64,000 nt of DNA from Periconia sp. R9002 (Eukaryota; Ascomycota; Dothideomycetes; Pleosporales; Periconiaceae), in the NCBI GenBank assembly GCA_023627715.1, contig JAMAHW010000003.1, positions 1 through 64,000 of the forward strand, written 5' to 3'. This document shows, piece after piece, positions 45,378 through 63,153 of this stretch. The notes under the pieces are model-generated. The model saw only the letters and a program-made list of their open reading frames with translations, had not been told where the DNA came from and made no database searches. How positions within the stretch are numbered: the first letter of the stretch is position 1; each line of letters begins with the position of its first letter. A program made the translations under genes and the position numbers.

Positions 45378-48300
45378 TCGAATCCATCCAGGGCCGGGTT
45401 AAATGAGGGATGGAAATCTACGTAACACCAGCACGAAGCGCACGAAGGAATGAAGGCATGAAGCAGCAAGCCCCATCTTCTCAAAGGTAGGAGAGCCAAG
45501 AACACAAAAAGGTCGGTCTTTAGACCAAAACCCGTTTGAACAATCAATGCAAAAACATAAAATTCCTTTCAATGAACACAAGTCACATTTCAGAACCATT
45601 CACTGTTGCTTCTCTGTACATTTCTCTTTCCCTGTACCTTTGTTCCGCAGCACATATGCCCTCCACAAAGTTCATCTCACACCCAATCCATAAACACCGC
45701 CGATGTACAAACCTAACCTCCACTACCCGGAATCAATAACCCCCGATTCCAGATCTCAACCTCAATAACGATGACGATGACGTGAGAAACAATAGCATAC
45801 CTATCTCGGTCCCGCGTACTCCCCCTCTCCCCTATGCCTTACTTCTATACTTACATAGGTACTCAGGTACTCAGGTCTTAACCTCACCTCACCTACCTAC
45901 CTTTCCATCTATGTACACCACATACACGTACACATACACATCCTCCATACGCACCCAGCTAGCCACCCGCAAACCTCTCCACCCGCCCACCTAAGCACGC
46001 AACTCGGTACCTGTCAGACCTGATGACGTGAGCTGTGAGATGCAGGAACTATCGATCGTCTTACTACCTTGATGATTTACCTACCTACCTATTGTGTAAT
46101 TCCGAGACACTCACACAGACACAAACGGTTGGGGAAGGGTGGGAAGGTCAGGCGTCCACGGGGATGTCTTGCAGGGACGGCAGACGGGACGGCGAGGTGT
46201 GGAGGGTGGAAGCTTACGTGGGATGATGATGGTGATGATGGGAATGCTGGGGATGATGATGGTGATGGTGAGATGGAGGGGATGGGAGGGGGTAGGATAG
46301 GAAGCCGAGTGTTGGTTGGGAAGGGATGGGGAGGTGGTTTGATAGTCAGTGAGGGTTAGATGTCCATACGGTGGTGACAAGCGTCACGTGCGCGAAAACA
46401 CCAAACAACATCAATTTTGAATGAACGCGCACACATCTCCACGTACGTTACCAAAAATCAATTGCCTCACCTACCTTACCTACTCCCCCCTCCCCCTCCA
46501 ACCAACCCCCAAAGAAGATTCCAAATCCCCACCCAGTCCATACATACACGCCATTGTGGCAAATTTCCTCCATGGATCAACAAAAGTGTTGACGCGTACA
46601 TACACATTCTACCAGACAACCACCAAACGCGCATGTATCAACCATGTCGAGCAATCAATCAATTACCAAGCCGGTATAGATACAAAGTAGTCCCGCGGTC
46701 GCCCGAGTGAAGTAGGTAGGTAGATGCCCGTTGCGTTCGTGGAGGGATACCTAACCTAGGGTAGGGGAGGAGTCCCATGTTGCCGTTTTCGGCCGGAGAG
46801 GGGCTGGAAAGGGAAGGCGGGCGCGGGTGGGAAAGTTGAGGCTACGTGTGTAGTAATGCTTACCTACTTACCTACAAAGGTAGTTTACAGTGAAGTGCCG
46901 TGGAAATGGGCGATGGTTAAACATGAATCGCCATCGATGGTTAGCTCTTGGAATGTGTCAAAGGCAAAGTTGGCATGGCACACGCGATGGCGCGCCCAAT
47001 GGTGTAGACGCGATTCAAGTTCGTGGGCTGTGTTTAGTGGGGGGTTTTTTTTTTTCATTTCGTTGATTCGTTAGCTGGAGGGAAGGTAGTGGGAAAGTCA
47101 CGGTGCGTGATTCGTCGGATGGCGAGCGGAATTTTTTTTTTGATTGGGTTAGCGGGTAGCCGGGGAGCAAAAAGGGACGTGTGTGATTTGATTTTCTTTT
47201 TTTCTTTTTTGTTTCGAATGGCAACATTAGACGCAAAAAAAAAAACAAGTTTGTAAACAACGCGGGACGGCACGGCTCAGGCATCCGGTGAGCAAACCGG
47301 TGACAGACAAGAAACTTTTGGCAGAGGGCAACACTGTGCAAAAACGAATGGGAATAGGTAATGAGCAGTGGGCCGGAGGGAGGTAGCGACTGACAACCGG
47401 TCGTGCAGAAGATTGCGGGAGCCCGCACGGCGGCCCGTTTGGGTATTGATGGCGAATGGTAGTGGGAAGCGATCCGGCTGGAGGCGCTGTTTGGCGTCGC
47501 TGAAGGTTGGGCGACGAATGGTGCTTTTGCGCTGATCTGCCTTCATGATGCAGGAACGGGACTGCCCGCAAAGTGCGTGTTTGCGCTGCCGTTGGTGGTT
47601 GAGCTGTGATGGTGGCTCACAGCATATAAAGTTAGTTGGTGGGCAGGTGACGATGATGAGATCAGAGGGGGCAATCTATCGATAGGTGATAACACAGGGC
47701 GTCTGCGGGCGCAATCGAGAGGGCGAACGAACAGTGTGGAGTTGTTGGATCCAAGCCCATGCGTCGCGAGCCATGACACGATGAGGGTGCATGTGGGCGC
47801 AGACGGGCGGCCTGGCGGACGGTCTGATGAAGATGGCAGCTAGCCCCTTTTCTGCGGGATTGCATAAATGTGCAAGATTGCCTTATTTGCGAGGGCGGCC
47901 GGGATCATGGCTGTCACCAGGGGCAGATCTGTCATTGCATTGTGTGCTATGGCATGGGAGAGATGACGAGCGATGGGAGTTGTGCTGACGGCTGTTCAGA
48001 GTTCTTGGGGTCCGGCTCGGTGGGTCTTGGGTGATCTTCCGCACGTACACGCGTTGCCGGATGTAAATAAATAAACAAACAAACACCACGCATGTAAACA
48101 ATAACAATCACAACAAAATGCTAATAATGAAACTTGACGCCACACAGCGCAGCGGCCAGGTGGCATGAACAGGAGAAAATTGGATGGATGTAGAAGGGAC
48201 TGATTTTTTTCTTCTTCACATTTTTTGTTTGCAATTGCGGCGGCGCTTCGACGTTGAGAGGTCGCGCGTGCTCTAGCAGGTAGCCGTCTGGTTGCAGAAG

Positions 48301-53879: not shown

Positions 53880-53967
53880 ATTCCAAAGACCATGATGATG
53901 ATGCTGGCGGTAGTGATCGTCTTCATCATCATCATCATCATCATTGACTTCATCGTCGTCGTCGTTG

Positions 53968-54015
53968 TCGTTTCGAGCGCTCACATAGGTGGGAAGGGGT
54001 GGGAGGGTGTAGGTG
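53968..54015 (+). repeat. 48-bp block, exact direct repeat, first copy
   Basis: This block (starting TCGTTTCGAGCGCTCACATA) recurs without a mismatch at 54289-54336, 321 bp away. Both blocks follow the GTC-rich arm of the hairpin core and precede the TATA box of their unit. Exact identity over 48 bp marks a recent duplication or homogenisation at the left edge of the array. Confidence 0.9.
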
Positions 54016-54288
54016 GGAGGAGAAGTAGCGGTGTGGTGGTGGAGAGGGGTATATAAACACCCTTCTTTTCCTCCTTGCTTCGTTTTTTGTTTTTTTCTGC
54101 ACAGAGGTGGGTTGTGGTGTGGTGTGAGTAGGGGGGTTCTAAAATCACTACAATGCAGATGTATGTGTGTGTGTGGGTGGGTGTGCGTGTGTGGGTTGAT
54201 GAAGTGGGCGTGATTTCGAAATGGGGTTTTTTGGGTGATGAGATGGTGGTGGTGGTGGTGATCGTCGTCGTCATCGTCGTCGTCGTCA

Positions 54289-54336
54289 TCGTTTCGAGCG
54301 CTCACATAGGTGGGAAGGGGTGGGAGGGTGTAGGTG
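54289..54336 (+). repeat. 48-bp block, exact direct repeat, second copy
   Basis: Second copy of the block at 53968-54015. After it the two units still agree in AGAAGTAGCGGTGT before diverging towards their TATA boxes. Confidence 0.9.
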
Positions 54337-54944
54337 CGACAGAAGTAGCGGTGTAGGTAGGAACAGGGAAGGGGGCAGGGGGATGGGGATGGGTATATAA
54401 AGCTTCTTCTTTTCCTCCTTTTTTTCTTTCCTTTCTTCTTCTTCACACAGGTGGGTTGTGGTGTGGGAGTAGGGGGTAGAGGGGTTTTAAACCTATGCAA
54501 AACAATTTTCATGTGTGGGTGGGTGTTGGAGTTGTGTGAGATTTTCGAAGTGAGAGTTTTTAGGGGGGAATGAGATGGTGGTGGTGGTGGTGGTGGTGAT
54601 CGTCATTCGTCGTTCTTGATCATTATCGCCATTAATCTAGATTAAGAGCATGTAGGAGGGCGGGCAGTGGGGATTAGTAAGTACGTGGGTGTCGGGGTAT
54701 ATAAGCCCCTCTCCCTCCCCCTTCCTCTTTCTTTTCTTTTTCACACAGATGGTTTGTGGTGTGGGGTGAGTGGGAGGTTCTAAAAAGAATTCGAATGCAA
54801 GTATAGGATGTGTGGCGTGGGTGGGTGGGTGTTCGTGTGTGCGTGAGGTTTTCGAAGTGGGAGTTTTTAGGGGGGATGAGACGGTGGTGCACATCATCAT
54901 CATCATCGCCATCATTCCAGATTAAGGGTACGTAAGACAGGGGA

Positions 54945-54978
54945 TTAGTCATACGTGTGGGAATCCAAGTATTTAAAC
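54945..54978 (+). promoter_or_regulatory. TTAGTCAT box plus TATA-like box, example unit
   Basis: TTAGTCAT at 54945-54952 is followed 26 bp later by TATTTAAA (54971-54978). The same box occurs at 55249, 56117, 56390, 57680, 58470, 59277, 59864 and 60208. Spacing to the next TATA box is about 24-26 bp in five of these units and 35-44 in three. TTAGTCA resembles AP-1/Yap1-type bZIP sites. Being upstream of TATA at constant spacing, it reads like a core promoter. Confidence 0.45.
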
Positions 54979-56023
54979 CTCTTCTTCTTCCTCCTCCTTC
55001 TCTTCTCTTTCTTCTTTACACAGGTGGTTGTGGTGTGGGTAGGGGAATTTAAATATCAAGGTCCTATGGCCATGTGCGTGGGTGTGGTGCGTGTTTGTGT
55101 AAGGCTCATGAACCGTGCTGGGCAAATTCGAAGGATTTTGCGATTGATGATGCTGAGTCTGATGGTGACGCTACACACCATCATTACAAACAATGATTAG
55201 TACAAAGTGGATAAAATATTATAATTTTACCTTGTAGCCAGGAGGGGCTTAGTCATCCGTAGGGATTAAAGATATATAAACCCCCCTTCGCCCTCCTCTT
55301 TTTTTTTCCTCACGAGTAGTGTGTGAGTAGACAGGGTTCTAAAAGATCGAAAAAAATGGCTGCATGTGGTGGTGGTGGTGTTTGTGGGTTGGAGTCGTAC
55401 GTGTTTTTCATGAACTGTGTTTCGCAAATTCGAAGGATTGTAGTGATGATGCTGAGGTTGGTGGTGGTGACGACAAATATCGTTATCATCATTATTACGA
55501 GAGTTCCTCCCTATAGATTCTGTGGTGAGTAGGAGGATATAATTCAGGTAACGAAATAGCGGTGTGGACAGGGACTCAGTGGGTATATAAACCCCCCTCT
55601 TCTTCCTGATTTCTCTTCTTTTTCTTTTTCTCACAAGTGGTGTGTGTGAGTGGAAAGAGTCTTTAAAAAAAAAGGAAAGCCACAATGGCGTTACGTGTGG
55701 GTTTCTGGGTTGGAATTTGAATTGTGAGTTGTTTATAATTATTAAATTTCCAATAGATGGTGATGATGAATATCATCGGCACCGTTGTTTTCATCGTCGT
55801 CGTCGTTGGCACGAGGGCTTACATAAGAGGGGTATACTCACTAGCGTGGCTAGGTGGGGATATAAACCCCCCTCTTCTTCGTTGTTTCTCTTCTTCTTTA
55901 CACAGATGGTTTGTGGTGTATGTAGGGGGATATAAAAAAAACACAAATCAGCTGTTCATGTGTGTCTGTTGTCTCTGGATCATGTAAAAACACAGATTCT
56001 AGGAATACGATTTTGATAGTAAT

Positions 56024-56051
56024 GGTGATGCTGTGTATCATCAGCATCACC
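56024..56051 (+). other. Perfect 10-bp hairpin core of an array unit
   Basis: GGTGATGCTG (56024-56033) pairs with CAGCATCACC (56042-56051) around an 8-nt loop. It is the best-preserved inverted repeat among the units and sits about 100 bp upstream of the next TATA box. Confidence 0.75.
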
Positions 56052-57319
56052 GTCGTCGTTACAAGGGCTTGCTCTCGATCAATACATTGTGATTTGGATG
56101 GACATAGGGGAGAGGATTAGTCACTAGCCTGAGTAAGGTAGCGGACGAAGGTATATAAACCCCCTCTTCTTCCCTGATTCTCTTTTCTTTTCTCTACAAG
56201 TGGTTTGTGTGTGTAGAGGAGTTCTTTGAAAAAAAGAAAACCGGTGATTATCTATGTGGGCGCGTGCGCGTCTGCGCGTCTGCGAGGTTCATAAAATGAT
56301 TATTTGGATATGGATACAAGTATTGATGATGATGTTATACATCAGCACTAGATCAAATCACTACCCGAAGGGATTGACCGAAGGATTGATTAGTCAGGGG
56401 AGGAAGTGGGTAGGGTATATAAGCTTCCTCCTTCTCCACCTTCTTTTCCTTTCTTCTTTTCTTTTTTACACGCGTGGTTTGTGGGGGGTTTATACACTTC
56501 GAAAAGGGCAACGAGAGAAAGTGATGGGGTGCGTGCGTGTTTGGTTCATGTTCGAATTTTGCGTGTCTATAGTGTGTGGGTGTGCTTCTGTGTGTGAAGT
56601 TCATGAACTATATCTTCGAATTTGAACTAGGTGGCGATAGTAGTGGTGCTGTTCTGTGTCATCATCATTATCATCACCACGAGAGTTCTAGATCAATCAA
56701 ATCCTCGTCATTCTCGTCACCAGTGCTCGTTCTTGATTGGATAGATTATATAGTAAGTAGGAGTGGTAGGAGACAGTTATTAGTAATCAAGTGAGCGTGT
56801 TAGGGTATATAAACTCCCTCCTCTTCTTTGTAACTTCTTTTCTTTTCTCTACAAGTGGTTTGGGTAGTATGGGTTTGTAGGGGATTAAAAAGGCAAACTG
56901 AAAACATACTATGTCTGTGTTTTTGTGTGTGTGGTTATAGTTTATAAACTACATGGCCTTTTTTGATCGAAGCTAAGAATAATGATGATGGTGGCAGTAG
57001 CGGTGACGGCCTACACCATCAGCACCAGTCTTTGTTCCGGACTGGATTGTAGGGATAAATATGGGAGTGGGAGAGGAATGACTTGGTGCGGAGATTGGTT
57101 ATGTAGGCAGGGAACTAAGGTATATTAATCCCCTGATTATCCTACTTCTCTTCTCTTTTTTCCGACATAGATACTGGTGCGTGTCAGTGAACGGATTAAA
57201 AATGTGCAGGTGAAGGAACCATGTTGGTGCTCGCGCTGAGTGTGTGAATTTCCTAAATCATGTTTTGAAATTTAGGTTCAATTTTGATAAGTATGCGGCG
57301 ATGGCTCTGATAATGATGG

Positions 57320-57337
57320 TGATGATGTCTATCATCA
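57320..57337 (+). other. 7-bp hairpin core of an array unit
   Basis: TGATGAT (57320-57326) pairs with ATCATCA (57331-57337) around a 4-nt loop, in the same place within its unit as the core at 56024. Confidence 0.6.
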
Positions 57338-58029
57338 GCATGGTTACGAGAGTTTGCTCTAGATGGGGAGTAAGTAGGATGGGGAGGGGATAGATTTGTC
57401 AGTTGAGGAAATGGCGGTGTCGGTGGGTATATAAACCGCCTTCTTCTCTCCTTCCTTTCTTTCCTGCACAGGTAGTGTGTTTAGAGAGTTAGAGGGGTTT
57501 AAAAGGAACCCCTATCCGGAACTATGTGTGGTGTTGTGGGCGGGTGTTTGTGTGCCCGTAGAAGTAATATTAAATGGTTGGTTTTTAGATACGTATATAA
57601 GATGGTGATGATGATGCTATTGTATACCATCGTCGTTATCAGGCAGGTCAGTTTCAGTTCTATTGTAAGTAGAAGGGGATTAGTCAGGCATAAGATTGTG
57701 AATGGGTCCGGGTAGGTATATAAACCTCCCCTTTTCTCTTCCCTTCTCATTTTTTTTTTGCTTTCTGCACAGGTGGTGGAAGTGGTGTGTTCAAAACATT
57801 GTTTTGGAGATAAAAACTGGTGCAAATACATTTCGATGGTTTGTTGGAGGTTAAACAAGAACACGAGTACAAAATGATGTGTGGTGTGGGTGCGCGCTTC
57901 AAATTCGTACATGGCATTCGCCTTTTTGGCGGCGTGCGTGGGGTACCCTGGGTGTGTCAAGTGCATGTTTTGAGCTTTTAGATACATCATGATTTGCAAG
58001 AAGATGATGATGGTGATTTGATTGCGGTA

Positions 58030-58049
58030 GTGATGCTATACAGCATTAT
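58030..58049 (+). other. 8-bp hairpin core with two G-U pairs
   Basis: GTGATGCT (58030-58037) pairs with AGCATTAT (58042-58049) around ATAC. Two of the pairs are G-T, stable only as G-U in a plus-strand RNA. Confidence 0.6.
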
Positions 58050-58826
58050 CGGCGCCAGCCGATTAGAGAGGGGGAGGGACTTAGGAGTTAGGTAGGTAGG
58101 CATTCAGATATATATACCCCGTTTCTTCCCTTTCAACTTTTTTTTTTTTTTTGATTAGGCTTAGTATTTTAGTAGGGGATTTTGAAAGAGGATTTTTACC
58201 AACTTTTTCACACTAGGCCTAGGAAACCTAGGTAGTTATTACTATTAAGAGTGCCTAATACTTACTTATACTTATTGAAAGAGGATCAAGTTCAAACTGA
58301 TGTGTCTTTGTGCGTTTGTGTGCGGGTCAGGTTTCCATGTTTTTAGGTTTTAAGGTATATAGGTAAGACAAAGGCGATGACTATGATGATGATGCTGCGC
58401 ATTAGCATTGACTACACCGGATTAATATACTATTACTCGTATATTCTAAACTACGAATACTAGGATTGATTAGTCATAAACGTAAGCGTAAGTGTGAGTG
58501 TCGGTGTCTATGGTATATAAGGTTCCTTCTCCTCTTATTGTCTTCCCTTTTTTCCCCCACAGATATGATATTCTGGTTCGGGGAAAAACGAGACGCAGGC
58601 CTACTGTATGGCTGTGTGTGCGGGTGTGCGCGAGTAGTTTATGCAATGGGTTTTTTCTGTGTTAAGATGGCAATGGTGGTAATGATACACAACACCGCTA
58701 ATAACCCGTATCTTAGCTTTATGGCAAATTGGATGGACTTGAAGTAGAAGTAAGGATTTTGATACATGGCTGTAGTATATTTGTGGACCAGTGATTTTTA
58801 GGCAGAATTTTAAGAACCAGATCGCG

Positions 58827-58846
58827 GTGGCGATACGTATCATCAC
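58827..58846 (+). other. Hairpin core with central GATACGTATC
   Basis: GTGG and TCAC flank the palindrome GATACGTATC. The arms pair with one C-A mismatch (58831/58842) and one G-T pair (58830/58843). Confidence 0.5.
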
Positions 58847-59105
58847 GCATGCAGCGCGAATTGTAGTTTACGTGCAAGGTAGAGCCTAGGTGATTACTAA
58901 GAGATGAAAATTCATGTATATAAGCTCTCTTCGTCTGCCTGAATTTCCTTTTTCTTCTCTTCACTGTATTAATAGGGGGTGTGGTATTTCTGTTTGTAAA
59001 CAACTGAAACATGGACTCCAGTATGGGGGTGGTGTGTGTGAGTTGTCTGGCTTGTATGAAAATCAGATGACTTACTACTTTATTATGTGAGTATTTAGGT
59101 AATAT

Positions 59106-59127
59106 GGTGATGATTCGTGTCATTACC
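59106..59127 (+). other. 9-bp hairpin core with two wobble pairs
   Basis: GGTGATGAT (59106-59114) faces GTCATTACC (59119-59127) around a 4-nt loop. Seven pairs are Watson-Crick and two are G-T. Confidence 0.6.
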
Positions 59128-59491
59128 CACGCCGCACGAAATATAGTCTACGAAGAGATGTTTTGGTGGACCACACATGCTGGATGTTTTTTTTGGTTTC
59201 AAAATGTTCATAACTACATGAATAGGTAATGATACGCATCAGCACTATGCGAAAATTGCTATGTGGCGTGGAATTCTTAGTCATACACTTAACCATGAAA
59301 GTATATAAACTCCCCTCTTCATTTCTTTTCTTCTCTCCACGCTGAGGGTCTTAGTTTTCGTTGTAAATCAAAACAAAAATGGTACAACGCCATGAGTGAC
59401 GTGGGTGGTTGGTTTAAATACGGTCTATCTATATGTGTGGACGTTATTATGTTGATGTTTTACAAAGTGGATATTTCGAAATATGGGTGGG

Positions 59492-59517
59492 GTGGTGATG
59501 TAGAACAGCATCACTGC
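59492..59517 (+). other. 9-bp hairpin core with two wobble pairs
   Basis: GTGGTGATG (59492-59500) pairs with CATCACTGC (59509-59517) around an 8-nt loop. The two mismatches to a perfect inverted repeat are both G-T. Confidence 0.6.
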
Positions 59518-61110
59518 ACTGACATGTAATTTCGGATGCCTACCTATACGTGAGATGTCATAGCTATCGCTGAGAATTCTGCGTATATAAACCTCCTTTA
59601 TTCTGTCTCTCCGTTTTCCTCATACCATGGTGTGCTTCGTGTTAGGGTGTTTTCTTTTCCTTAAAAAAACAAACAAAAAAACGAGAAGCGATATTCACGC
59701 ACCATGGTGGGTGTGTTTGTGTATGAAGGGTGATTACTTTTAATGATTGGGTTTGCTGAAAGCTTCATGAGTTATGTTTTTTAAATGAGTTGGTGATGAC
59801 GAGTAGCATCAACGCACAATGCTAGAGCCTATGGTTGAATAGACTACATACAGGTGAAACGTCTTAGTCATACATCTAGATATCTGATATGAAAATGTTC
59901 TCTCCTCTTCTTTCCCCCCTTTCCCCTTTTCCTCACAGTAGAATTGTACTTGTCTATGCAATTTCTAAAAAGTCTCTTGCACCGACAAATGTGTTGTGGC
60001 TGATCTAAAATTGGCAAGCACTCATACATATGTCTTGCTGGGTGTCTATTCAAAAATAACTACAATGAGGCGAAATGGGGTGTGTGCAGTAGTGCATGGT
60101 GAGTAGCTTTTTCATGTATTGACTTTTTAGAGAGACCCAGGGTGAATTCCAGGATTGAGGTGGTGATGATGATGATGCGTATCAGGATTACCCCAATCAA
60201 TATATTATTAGTCATGTAGGCATTTCTCTACTATATAAGCTCCCTCTCTTCCTCTTTCTTCCTCTCCTTTACACTGCAATTCTATTCGTTATGAATGAGC
60301 ACTGGGGGAATCCCAAAAAAGCGGAGATGGATGATAATAAGTAGTGTTCGGGGTTTAGTTTCAAATGATGCTACAAACTCTTGAATGGCGTGTGTGTCAC
60401 AGTGTATGTGTGCAAATGGGTGAGCGCGTGTTTTTCGAAATGGGAAGAGCGGGGCTCTTTTCACTGGAACACTTTTGTGGTGATGATGATGATGTACAGC
60501 AGCACCATTTGGTAGAGTATCAGTCATACGCTTGCGTATCTACAAATATAAAAATCCTTCCTTCTTGATAACAATGATTCTTCTTTTTCGCATTACAGTG
60601 AAGTGTGATATTGTGTTTCAAAATGCTAAGATCTGCGATGAATGTGTGGAGTTTGCTTTGGCTTGAAGCCCGCCAGGTAATCTATGATGTTATGTGCGAA
60701 TGATTCATTCATGAAGTCGTTTTTTAGAGAATGCGGCGATGATGCAGAGCAGCAGCGACAGCGGTATGCATTCATGTGTTAGTAATAACCAAGAAATTCG
60801 TTCTCCCCAGTCTTCTTGTTTTCCCATTACGACGTACCACTCTCAAGGTTACGAGAAAATTCTCTCAAAACATGGTTCGACGAGTCCTATGTGTCGGGTT
60901 GGGTGTTGGGCTTGTAATTTGTCTTTCTTCAGATGATGGATAATGACGACTGGAGTGCTCATGTGTCATTTCTAGCGCATTTGGAAGTTGGGATGTGGTG
61001 TGATGGTGATGCGTGTCAGCACTGCAGGAAAGTTGGTGAAGATGCGCAGCACCATCCTTGGCAAGCGAGTAATAGCTTGTTTACGGCGCAGTTTTCGAAA
61101 CTTCCTTTCT

Positions 61111-61885: not shown

Positions 61886-63153
61886 ATGAAGGCTGTCATC
61901 ATCAAAGAGCGGGGCATTGCGGCGCTTGCTGATATCAAGGAACAGACATTGCCGCCAGACTACATTAAAGTCAAGACCGTTGCAGTTGCTCTCAATCCCA
62001 CCGATCTACATCATACGGCCGCTACAGGCCGCATAGGTGGTATTCTGGGGTGCGACTTGTCTGGGATAGTTGAAGAGGTTGGCGGAGAATGTAAATCCGA
62101 TGTAAAGAAAGGTGACAAGGTGTATGGCGTTGCCCACGGCGCGAATCTCGTGGGTACTCATCTTAAATCAGCATTATATGCCTCTAACATGGAATAGAGT
62201 TCTGAGGAGGATGGCGCATTCGCTGAATATGCTTTGGTGGCTGACGGCCACATCGCCAAAATTCCGGACTGCTTGACCTTTGAGGAGACGGCCACTTTGG
62301 GCGTGGGTATCACGACAATCGGCCAATCTCTTTACATGACCATGGGAATACCGAAACCGGGGGAGGAACCTCTCCCAGGTTCGCCTTTCATTCTGGTTTA
62401 CGGTGGTAGCTCTGCTACTGGAACCCTTGCCATCCAGTTTGCAAAGCTGTATGAAACATCAATCCCCAGATCTGAATTTCGGTGAAACTGACACTATAAC
62501 AGATCTGGTCTTTCTGTTGTCACTACCGCGAGCCCGGAGAATTTCGATTTGGTAAAATCTAGAGGCGCCGACGCTGTTTTCGACTACCATGACGCGGATT
62601 GCGCGCAGAAGATCAAACAATGCACTAAAGGATCAATTCCATACGTGCTAGACTGTGTATCGACGGAAGCCAGCTACAAAATCATTGCAGAGGCCTTACC
62701 AGAGGAATTAACAACACCAACGCAGATGGTGACTCTGTTGCCGGCAGAGACCTGGCCAAGGACGGATATAAAGCCGACCGTAGTGCTTGCTTATACGACG
62801 TTGGGCAAAGCTTTCACCAAATTTGGTGTCGACTTCCCACCCATTCCGGCTCATTTCGACTTCGGGGTCAAATGGTGGGCTTTTAGCAGGGAGCTTCTGG
62901 CTTCTGGAAAGGTCAAACCGCATCCGGTTGCACTGCGCGGTGGGGGACTAGGCGGTATTCCTGCCGGGTAATACCCTTCCGTCTCTCTCTCAAAATCGTT
63001 ACTAATTTGAATAGTATTGCTGAACACGCGAAGGGACAAGTAAGAGCTGTAAAGCTGGTATATAGGGTAGATGAGACGGATTCTGTGCTTGGAGAAGATG
63101 AACTTGCTACTCAGTCGAAACTTGACTCAAGCGTAAAGACGTGGAATTCATAA
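61886..63153 (+). CDS. MDR-family NAD(P)H oxidoreductase, ToxD/enoyl reductase-like
   Basis: Four exons, 61886-62149, 62198-62448, 62503-62967 and 63015-63153, 372 aa, with introns of 47-54 nt. The first joins restore YGVAHGANLSSEEDGAFAEY and QFAKLSGLSVVTTASPENF; the last gives PAGIAEHAKGQVRAVKLVYR. The GroES-like N-terminal domain (ILGCDLSGIVEEVGG) is followed by a Rossmann domain whose nucleotide loop reads LVYGGSSATGTLAIQFAKL. The Cys/His set for catalytic and structural zinc is absent, so it belongs to the zinc-free quinone/enoyl reductase group that includes ToxD and the trans-acting enoyl reductase LovC. No polyketide synthase is nearby, so a general reductase role is more likely. It probably acts in the cytosol. 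Confidence 0.9.

What the first reader, a model, noticed from the sequence alone, without database searches (positions are those of the whole stretch)
53880..61110. A 7-kb tandem array of composite units with no shared reading frame
About twenty units of 260-400 bp repeat the same order of elements in one orientation between the Wee1 and MDR genes. The elements, not the overall sequence, are what persist, and no ORF is shared. The unit is too complex for a simple satellite and is not a known mobile element that I recognise. It could be a tandem family of non-coding RNA genes. The plainest alternative is a minisatellite that expanded once and then decayed.
Basis: partly seen in the sequence, partly recalled or inferred. 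Interest (0 to 1): 0.8.

Follow-up and report, generated by a model that had tools for sequence, protein, structure and literature searches.

The report
Fungal arrays carrying unique 18-base cells
In a fungal genome, several long non-coding loci repeat the same switch-like DNA parts many times, and at one fixed spot the copies hold different sequences of about 18 bases, an arrangement that resembles a store of guide RNAs but whose function is untested.

Summary
Confirmed and extended. The window array has about 22 units; 20 keep a TATA-like box, and element order is constant. Split-half profiles recognise the other half above shuffles. No reading frame is shared. It is not a lone decayed minisatellite: seven further loci of the family lie in the same genome, a Pleosporales-like ascomycete. 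Two have one promoter followed by short modules only. The shared core is AAA - 17-20 nt - ATG plus GT-rich DNA (243 candidates; distance sharply peaked). The ~18-nt cell is the anomaly. Among 243 cells no two are alike beyond chance. In the 15 module pairs whose two flanks are both at least 75% identical (mean 83%), cells match at 50%, against 48% for random partners. So the cell has a fixed length but is not inherited with its flanks. None of those 15 pairs is from the window array; at the looser 68% cut 7 of 69 are. Best reading, inferred: transcribed non-coding loci whose payload is short variable, guide-like RNA, similar in logic to nematode piRNA genes or CRISPR arrays, member of neither. 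Transcription, processing and targets are untested.

The parts
53880..61110 (+). whole array, about 22 units in one orientation
54050..54163 (+). unit 1: TATATAA 54050, CACAG near 54100, variable cell 54145-54162, ATGTGTG 54163; no TTA[CG]T[AC]A
54394..54511 (+). unit 2: TATATAA 54394, CACAG near 54446, cell 54493-54510, ATGTGTG 54511; no TTA[CG]T[AC]A
54674..54808 (+). unit 3: TTAGTAA 54674, TATATAA 54698, CACAG near 54744, cell 54790-54807, ATGTGTG 54808
54945..55072 (+). unit 4: TTAGTCA 54945, TATTTAA 54970, CACAG near 55019, cell 55054-55071, ATG 55072
55249..55364 (+). unit 5: TTAGTCA 55249, TATATAA 55273, CAC near 55311, cell 55346-55363, ATG 55364
55584..55693 (+). unit 6: TATATAA 55584, CAC near 55632, cell 55675-55692, ACG instead of ATG 55693
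55859..55958 (+). unit 7: GATATAAA 55859, CACAG near 55901, cell 55940-55957, ATG 55958
56117..56254 (+). unit 8: TTAGTCA 56117, TATATAA 56152, cell 56236-56253, ATG 56254
56390..56524 (+). unit 9: TTAGTCA 56390, TATATAA 56416, cell 56506-56523, ATG 56524
56780..56911 (+). unit 10: TTAGTAA 56780, TATATAA 56806, cell 56893-56910, ATG 56911
57121..57221 (+). unit 11: TATATTAA 57121, cell 57203-57220, ATG 57221
57428..57524 (+). unit 12: TATATAA 57428, cell 57506-57523, ATG 57524
57680..57877 (+). unit 13: TTAGTCA 57680, TATATAA 57717, cell 57859-57876, ATG 57877
58109..58300 (+). unit 14: TATATAT 58109, cell 58282-58299, ATG 58300
58470..58608 (+). unit 15: TTAGTCA 58470, TATATAA 58514, cell 58590-58607, ATG 58608
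   Evidence: the profile placed the TATA at 58495; the exact box is at 58514
58894..59023 (+). unit 16: TTACTAA 58894, TATATAA 58917, cell 59005-59022, ATG 59023
59277..59392 (+). unit 17: TTAGTCA 59277, TATATAA 59302, cell 59374-59391, ATG 59392
59584..59697 (+). unit 18: TATATAA 59584, cell 59679-59696, ACG instead of ATG 59697
59864..60075 (+). unit 19: TTAGTCA 59864, TATA lost near 59888, ATG 59989; a further module ATG at 60075
60208..60337 (+). unit 20: TTAGTCA 60208, TATATAA 60232, ATA instead of ATG 60337
60520..60642 (+). unit 21: TCAGTCA 60520, AATATAA 60545, ATG 60642
60779..60889 (+). unit 22, most decayed: TTAGTAA 60779, no TATA, ATG 60889
   Evidence: PF00069 in both ORFs
61887..62971 (+). 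downstream zinc-binding dehydrogenase gene (start at 61887 read by eye)
   Evidence: PF00107 in ORF 62492-62968

Best explanation
The window array is one of at least eight loci, in one fungal genome, of a family of transcribed-looking non-coding arrays. Shown by sequence: a core promoter-like block (TTA[CG]T[AC]A, TATATAA, pyrimidine tract, CACAG/CACTG) followed by one or more modules AAA - 17-20 nt - ATG + GT-rich DNA; the 17-20-nt cell has fixed length, no sequence in common between modules, and is not inherited with its flanks when modules are duplicated. Inferred: the block is a Pol II promoter, perhaps driven by a Yap1-type bZIP factor; the transcript is cut at the two constant borders of each cell; the cell is released as a short RNA of about 18-22 nt that guides an Argonaute or another effector; and cells are renewed by replacement or strong diversifying selection. 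What replaces them is unknown.
For: Constant element order at eight loci found from a window-only profile and then refined. Strand asymmetry: 243 module candidates on the array strand, 19 on the other; 4.5 per kb against 0.27 per kb and strand in 172,893 fetched non-array bases. AAA-to-ATG distance peaks at 18-20 nt (0.21, 0.29, 0.21 of 565 ATG-GT sites; about 0.03 elsewhere). All-against-all similarity of 243 cells equals shuffled cells, best 13 of 18. Pairs chosen on the left flank at 80% or more (n=25): cell 0.467, right flank 0.663; chosen on the right flank (n=46): cell 0.468, left flank 0.592; backgrounds 0.45, 0.50, 0.47. Fifteen pairs with both flanks at 75% or more: cell 0.501, own shuffle 0.463, random partners 0.478 sd 0.030. 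C1 holds four copies in which homology runs on both sides of an unrelated cell. Inside the window, units 2 and 3 share the spacer of the TTTTCGAA module almost fully but not the cell. The promoter site set TTAGTCA / TTACTAA is the published Yap1 site set (PMC6545440, passages seen). The genome has Piwi-domain loci: 6 matches over the cut-off at 5 places, 4 with an open frame over nearly the whole domain.
Against: No RNA data. The 15 best pairs are not independent (6 from C21, 4 C15, 3 C1, 1 C12, 1 C45) and none is from the window. In neighbouring window-type units the cell keeps a slight similarity (0.045, se 0.016, over shuffle), so some inheritance may remain; the stretch after the hairpin is no more inherited than the cell (0.024 against 0.027 for non-neighbours), so in window-type arrays fast neutral change is not excluded. 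No target: 31 matches of 15 or more of 18 in 172,893 bases against 30 and 29 in controls; the genome-wide cell search was void because it did not find the cells' own loci. Predicted folds of 7 transcripts are not unusual (z -2.0 to +0.4). Two youngest window units lack the bZIP-like site.
Confidence: 0.4

Rival explanations
1. Each module is a cleavage and polyadenylation site (A-rich signal, about 18 nt, cleavage at CA, GU-rich downstream element), so the arrays are strings of promoter-terminator pairs or terminators giving short polyadenylated RNAs; the cell is an unconstrained spacer of fixed length.
For: Order and spacing fit the textbook signal (recalled): A-run, 17-20 nt, then GT-rich DNA starting at the ATG, often preceded by C (35 of 89). 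It explains fixed length without fixed sequence and loci directly downstream of genes in the same direction.
Against: A merely unconstrained spacer should stay similar in recently duplicated modules; it does not. One promoter followed by many terminators (C21, C91) makes little sense.
Confidence: 0.2
2. Old tandem arrays of promoter-like units without RNA payload: the promoter blocks act in cis (transcription itself, an insulator, or a sponge for a bZIP factor); flanks are kept alike by selection or gene conversion and the cell is neutral.
For: Promoter block is the best conserved part of the unit; TTA[CG]T[AC]A persists as different members of one site set in different arrays; post-hairpin DNA is as poorly inherited as the cell in window-type arrays.
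Against: C21 and C91 multiply the module without the promoter. Flanks that stay alike in C1 and C21 are locus-specific and run beyond any shared motif, so they point to recent duplication, not constraint.
Confidence: 0.25
3. Plain minisatellite that expanded once and decayed, without function.
For: Identity of neighbouring units falls from 0.72 at the upstream end to 0.36-0.46 at the far end.
Against: Eight loci with the same element order; TATA and TTAGTAA retained next to saturated spacers; orientation and module distance fixed.
Confidence: 0.1
4. Tandem short protein genes starting at the conserved ATG.
For: ATG in 89 of 101 aligned units.
Against: Open length no greater than in other frames; no A at -3; cell lengths 17-20 not in steps of three.
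Confidence: 0.03

Closest known systems
Caenorhabditis type-I piRNA (21U-RNA) genes
   Same: Thousands of clustered Pol II mini-genes with a constant upstream motif and a unique payload of about 20 nt (PMC7917550: abstract and passages seen).
   Different: Animal germline system; different motif; not tandem duplicates; one payload per promoter, whereas C21 and C91 have one promoter for many modules. No small RNA shown here.
CRISPR arrays
   Same: Leader-like promoter end, near-identical repeats in places, unique fixed-length cells, better preserved units at the leader end in three of four large arrays.
   Different: Eukaryotic nucleus; repeats diverge far more; no Cas genes sought; higher-order A-B-C blocks with changed cells are not how CRISPR arrays grow (recalled).
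Fungal minisatellites and satellite-derived non-coding RNAs
   Same: Tandem, non-coding, locus-specific variants.
   Different: Composite promoter block, several dispersed loci with constant order, and a non-inherited fixed-length cell.
Rfam RNA families
   Same: None.
   Different: 0 matches at gathering cut-off in the window; one chance-level miRNA hit below its cut-off in six other loci.

Membership tests
Type-I piRNA-like mini-genes | Own promoter with a constant upstream motif per payload | tested here: inconclusive
   True for promoter-bearing units; not for C21 and C91.
Type-I piRNA-like mini-genes | Unique short payload at a fixed place | tested here: met
   243 cells, no two alike beyond chance; distance peak 18-20.
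Type-I piRNA-like mini-genes | Short capped precursors and Argonaute-bound small RNAs | not testable with these tools
   No RNA data; only presence of Piwi-domain loci.
CRISPR array | Near-identical short repeats separated by unique spacers | tested here: inconclusive
   Holds locally in C21 and C1; most repeats are too diverged.
CRISPR array | Adjacent cas genes and spacers matching foreign DNA | not tested
   No cas search; target search void, 172,893 bases without excess.
Simple satellite or minisatellite | All parts of the unit diverge at one rate | tested here: not met
   Motifs retained beside saturated spacers; cell not inherited with flanks.
Tandem short protein genes | Shared open reading frame | tested here: not met
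Known RNA family or tRNA | Covariance model or tRNA match | tested here: not met
Yap1-type bZIP target promoters | TTAGTCA / TTACTAA / TTAGTAA-type site near a TATA box | tested here: met
   13 of about 22 window units; other arrays use other members of the set; binding not tested.
Poly(A) site arrays | RNA 3' ends at the module | not testable with these tools
   No RNA data.

The most novel reading that the evidence does not exclude
A nuclear fungal system that stores hundreds of unique ~18-nt guide sequences in promoter-led arrays and renews them in place faster than the surrounding repeat, i.e. a eukaryotic guide-RNA repertoire analogous to, but independent of, CRISPR arrays and nematode piRNA genes.
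Probability: 0.25. Interest if true: 0.97.

Novelty: categorically new. Interest (0 to 1): 0.82.

Why it matters
If the cells are guides, a fungus keeps a genome-encoded, rapidly renewed repertoire of short RNAs, which would open a new kind of eukaryotic sequence memory or arms race. Even if not, a fixed-length 18-nt stretch that is not inherited with its duplicated flanks needs a mechanism, and the arrays give eight loci in which to look for it.

Tried and rejected
Led nowhere or rejected: (1) shared ORF. (2) Hairpin as an RNA element kept by covariation: arms do not co-vary; the count of G.T against A.C mismatches (43 to 15) is explained by arm composition in my judgement. (3) RIP as cause of divergence: array TpA/ApT 0.83 and (CA+TG)/(AC+GT) 1.12 lie within the range of the rest of the window. 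(4) Known RNAs: Rfam and tRNA searches empty; six other loci gave only a sub-threshold miRNA hit. (5) Splice-site reading of TTACTAAT...CACAG: rejected because the other arrays have TTAGTCA and CACTG. (6) Cells shuffled among modules: no shared cells. (7) Genome-wide search for cell targets: void. (8) Stable fold: seven transcripts unremarkable. (9) First guess from memory that the organism was a Mortierella relative; the hexokinase search pointed to Pleosporales (one protein only). (10) Literature: searches listed nothing describing such arrays; subscription papers are not covered.

Weak points of my own tests: the hold-out profile test used an alignment that had been fitted with all loci included; the clean cross-locus evidence is the window-only profile. 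Module candidates were chosen by AAA, ATG and GT-richness, so information content at those columns is partly by selection; the distance peak and strand asymmetry are not. About 14-19 of the 243 candidates are expected by chance.
Full report
What is in the window. Order within a unit: TTA[CG]T[AC]A, about 18 nt, TATATAA, C-run and pyrimidine tract of about 38 nt, CACAG, a G/T-rich stretch, TTTAAAA, a variable cell, ATGTGTGTGGG, TTCGAA, a hairpin GATGATG...CATCATC. Twenty units keep a TATA-like box. Split-half profile tests recognise the other half above shuffled and other window sequence. Neighbour identity falls from 0.72 at the upstream end to 0.36-0.46 at the far end.

The family. The genome (42.9 Mb, 267 contigs) belongs to a Pleosporales-like fungus, judged from one protein: hexokinase, 95% identical to Periconia digitata. 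A 19-base pattern from the core matched six places outside and inside the window; two of them lay 319 bases apart on contig 15 and opened the family. With the profile made from the window array alone, hits with E up to 0.01 were C12 34, C15 23, C60 20, C1 3, C21 2, C91 1, C107 1; C14, C19 and C24 gave none. A refined profile added C45 with 15 hits (14 on one strand) and more units at C1, C21 and C60. I count eight loci: C3 (window), C1, C12, C15, C21, C45, C60, C91. C107 has one promoter-like match and no array. The combination TATATAAAC...TT[CT]ACAC[AT]G occurs six times in the genome, all in C15 and C60, control 0.

Promoter block. Different arrays use different members of one site set: TTAGTCA and TTAGTAA (C3), TTACTAATC (C15), TTAGTAAG (C60, C12). 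TGACTAA, TTAGTCA and TTACTAA are published Yap1 sites (PMC6545440, passages). That these are promoters is inference. Five of the eight loci lie downstream of, and in the same direction as, an ORF with a Pfam family: kinase (C3), RNase T2 (C15), zinc dehydrogenase (C60), DH/PH-domain ORFs (C12), P5A-type ATPase (C91). For C21 and C1 the tested upstream ORFs had no Pfam match and C45 was not tested.

Direction. Scores against the family model fall from the upstream end: Spearman -0.86 (C3, 23 hits), -0.70 (C15, 26), -0.74 (C12, 36); C60 -0.31, not significant (17 hits, p 0.22). Growth at the upstream end is one explanation; stronger selection there is another.

The module. C21 and C91 have one promoter block and then short modules: palindrome TTTT-NN-AAAA, 17-24 nt, ATGTGTG.... 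C1 has four promoter units and then several kilobases of modules of its own kind. The same module sits inside the window-type units. Over eight loci (53,827 bases) there are 243 candidates on the array strand and 19 on the other, 4.5 per kb against 0.27 per kb and strand in 172,893 fetched non-array bases; the AAA-to-ATG distance peaks at 18-20 nt. The pattern TTTT[CT][AG]AAAA-N16..20-ATGTGTG occurs five times in the genome: four in C21, one in C1, with 0 and 1 in the reversed controls. The looser TTNTAAAA form gave three: two in C21 and one at C1:1,313,237, outside the known loci.

The cell is not inherited. Between the 243 cells, similarity equals that of shuffled cells; the best pair matches at 13 of 18; none are shared and reverse-complement matches are at the same level. 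Of 7,093 within-locus pairs, those alike on the left flank (80% or more, n=25) are also alike on the right (0.663, background 0.50) but not in the cell (0.467, background 0.45); choosing on the right flank (n=46) gives cell 0.468, left flank 0.592, background 0.47. The 15 pairs with both flanks at 75% or more have mean flank identity 0.83 and cell identity 0.50 (range 0.43-0.62), against 0.463 for their own shuffles and 0.478 (sd 0.030) for random partners of the same locus. These pairs come from C21 (6), C15 (4), C1 (3), C12 and C45 and are not independent. C21 shows why the flanks must be recent copies: three module types recur in the order A-B-C with 85-92% identical flanks for five pairs while cells are 43-60%. 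C1 shows it again in four copies with homology on both sides of the cell. In the window the evidence is weaker: 7 of 69 pairs at the 68% cut are C3; units 2 and 3 share the spacer behind TTTTCGAA almost entirely but not the cell. Across promoter-bearing arrays neighbouring cells keep a slight similarity (0.045, se 0.016), and DNA after the hairpin is no more inherited than the cell, so in those arrays alone neutral change could suffice; C21 and C1 carry the argument.

What it does. Shown: composite arrays at eight loci, selective retention of a promoter-like block, fixed module geometry and strand, and a fixed-length cell that is not inherited with its flanks. Inferred: transcription from the block, processing at the cell borders, guide function, renewal of cells. 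The genome has Piwi-domain loci (six matches at five places, four with an open frame over nearly the whole domain), so an effector is available. Nematode type-I piRNA genes, >15,000 Pol II loci giving 28-nt precursors (PMC7917550, abstract and passages), work in a similar way in outline; membership is not claimed. The strongest rivals are a poly(A)-site reading of the module and a promoter or bZIP-sponge reading of the block.

Limits. Searches of the paper library listed nothing that describes such arrays; only listings were seen for these.

Noticed in passing
G000 C1:1,313,237-1,313,271 (-): A single strict module match outside the known loci; may mark a ninth locus.
   Followed up: no
G000 C107:104,466-104,538 (L038): TTAGTCA + TATATAAACC + pyrimidine tract matching the family core without an array; could be an ordinary promoter or the ancestral form.
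   Followed up: partly
G000 C60:155,133-157,002 and 161,347-161,667: Further diverged units beyond the main C60 array, separated from it by an ORF region.
   Followed up: partly
window 53,970-54,035 and 54,290-54,355: Units 1 and 2 share a nearly identical block of about 60 bases (TTTCGAGCGCTCACATAGG...), the youngest duplication in the window, and both lack TTA[CG]T[AC]A; AGTAGCGGTGT stands near its place.
   Followed up: no
G000 C37:52,547; C57:4,814; C69:11; C234:1,467: A near-identical AT-rich sequence (TTAGTAATACTATACTTTAC...TATATAAGC) at four contigs, probably an unrelated dispersed repeat.
   Followed up: no
G000 C6, C15, C59, C161, C1: Piwi-domain matches at five places; the C1 one is split and holds a TAG.
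   Followed up: no
window 46,224-46,276: Short TGATGATGG tandem repeat inside the gene-rich part, similar in letters to the hairpin arms.
   Followed up: no
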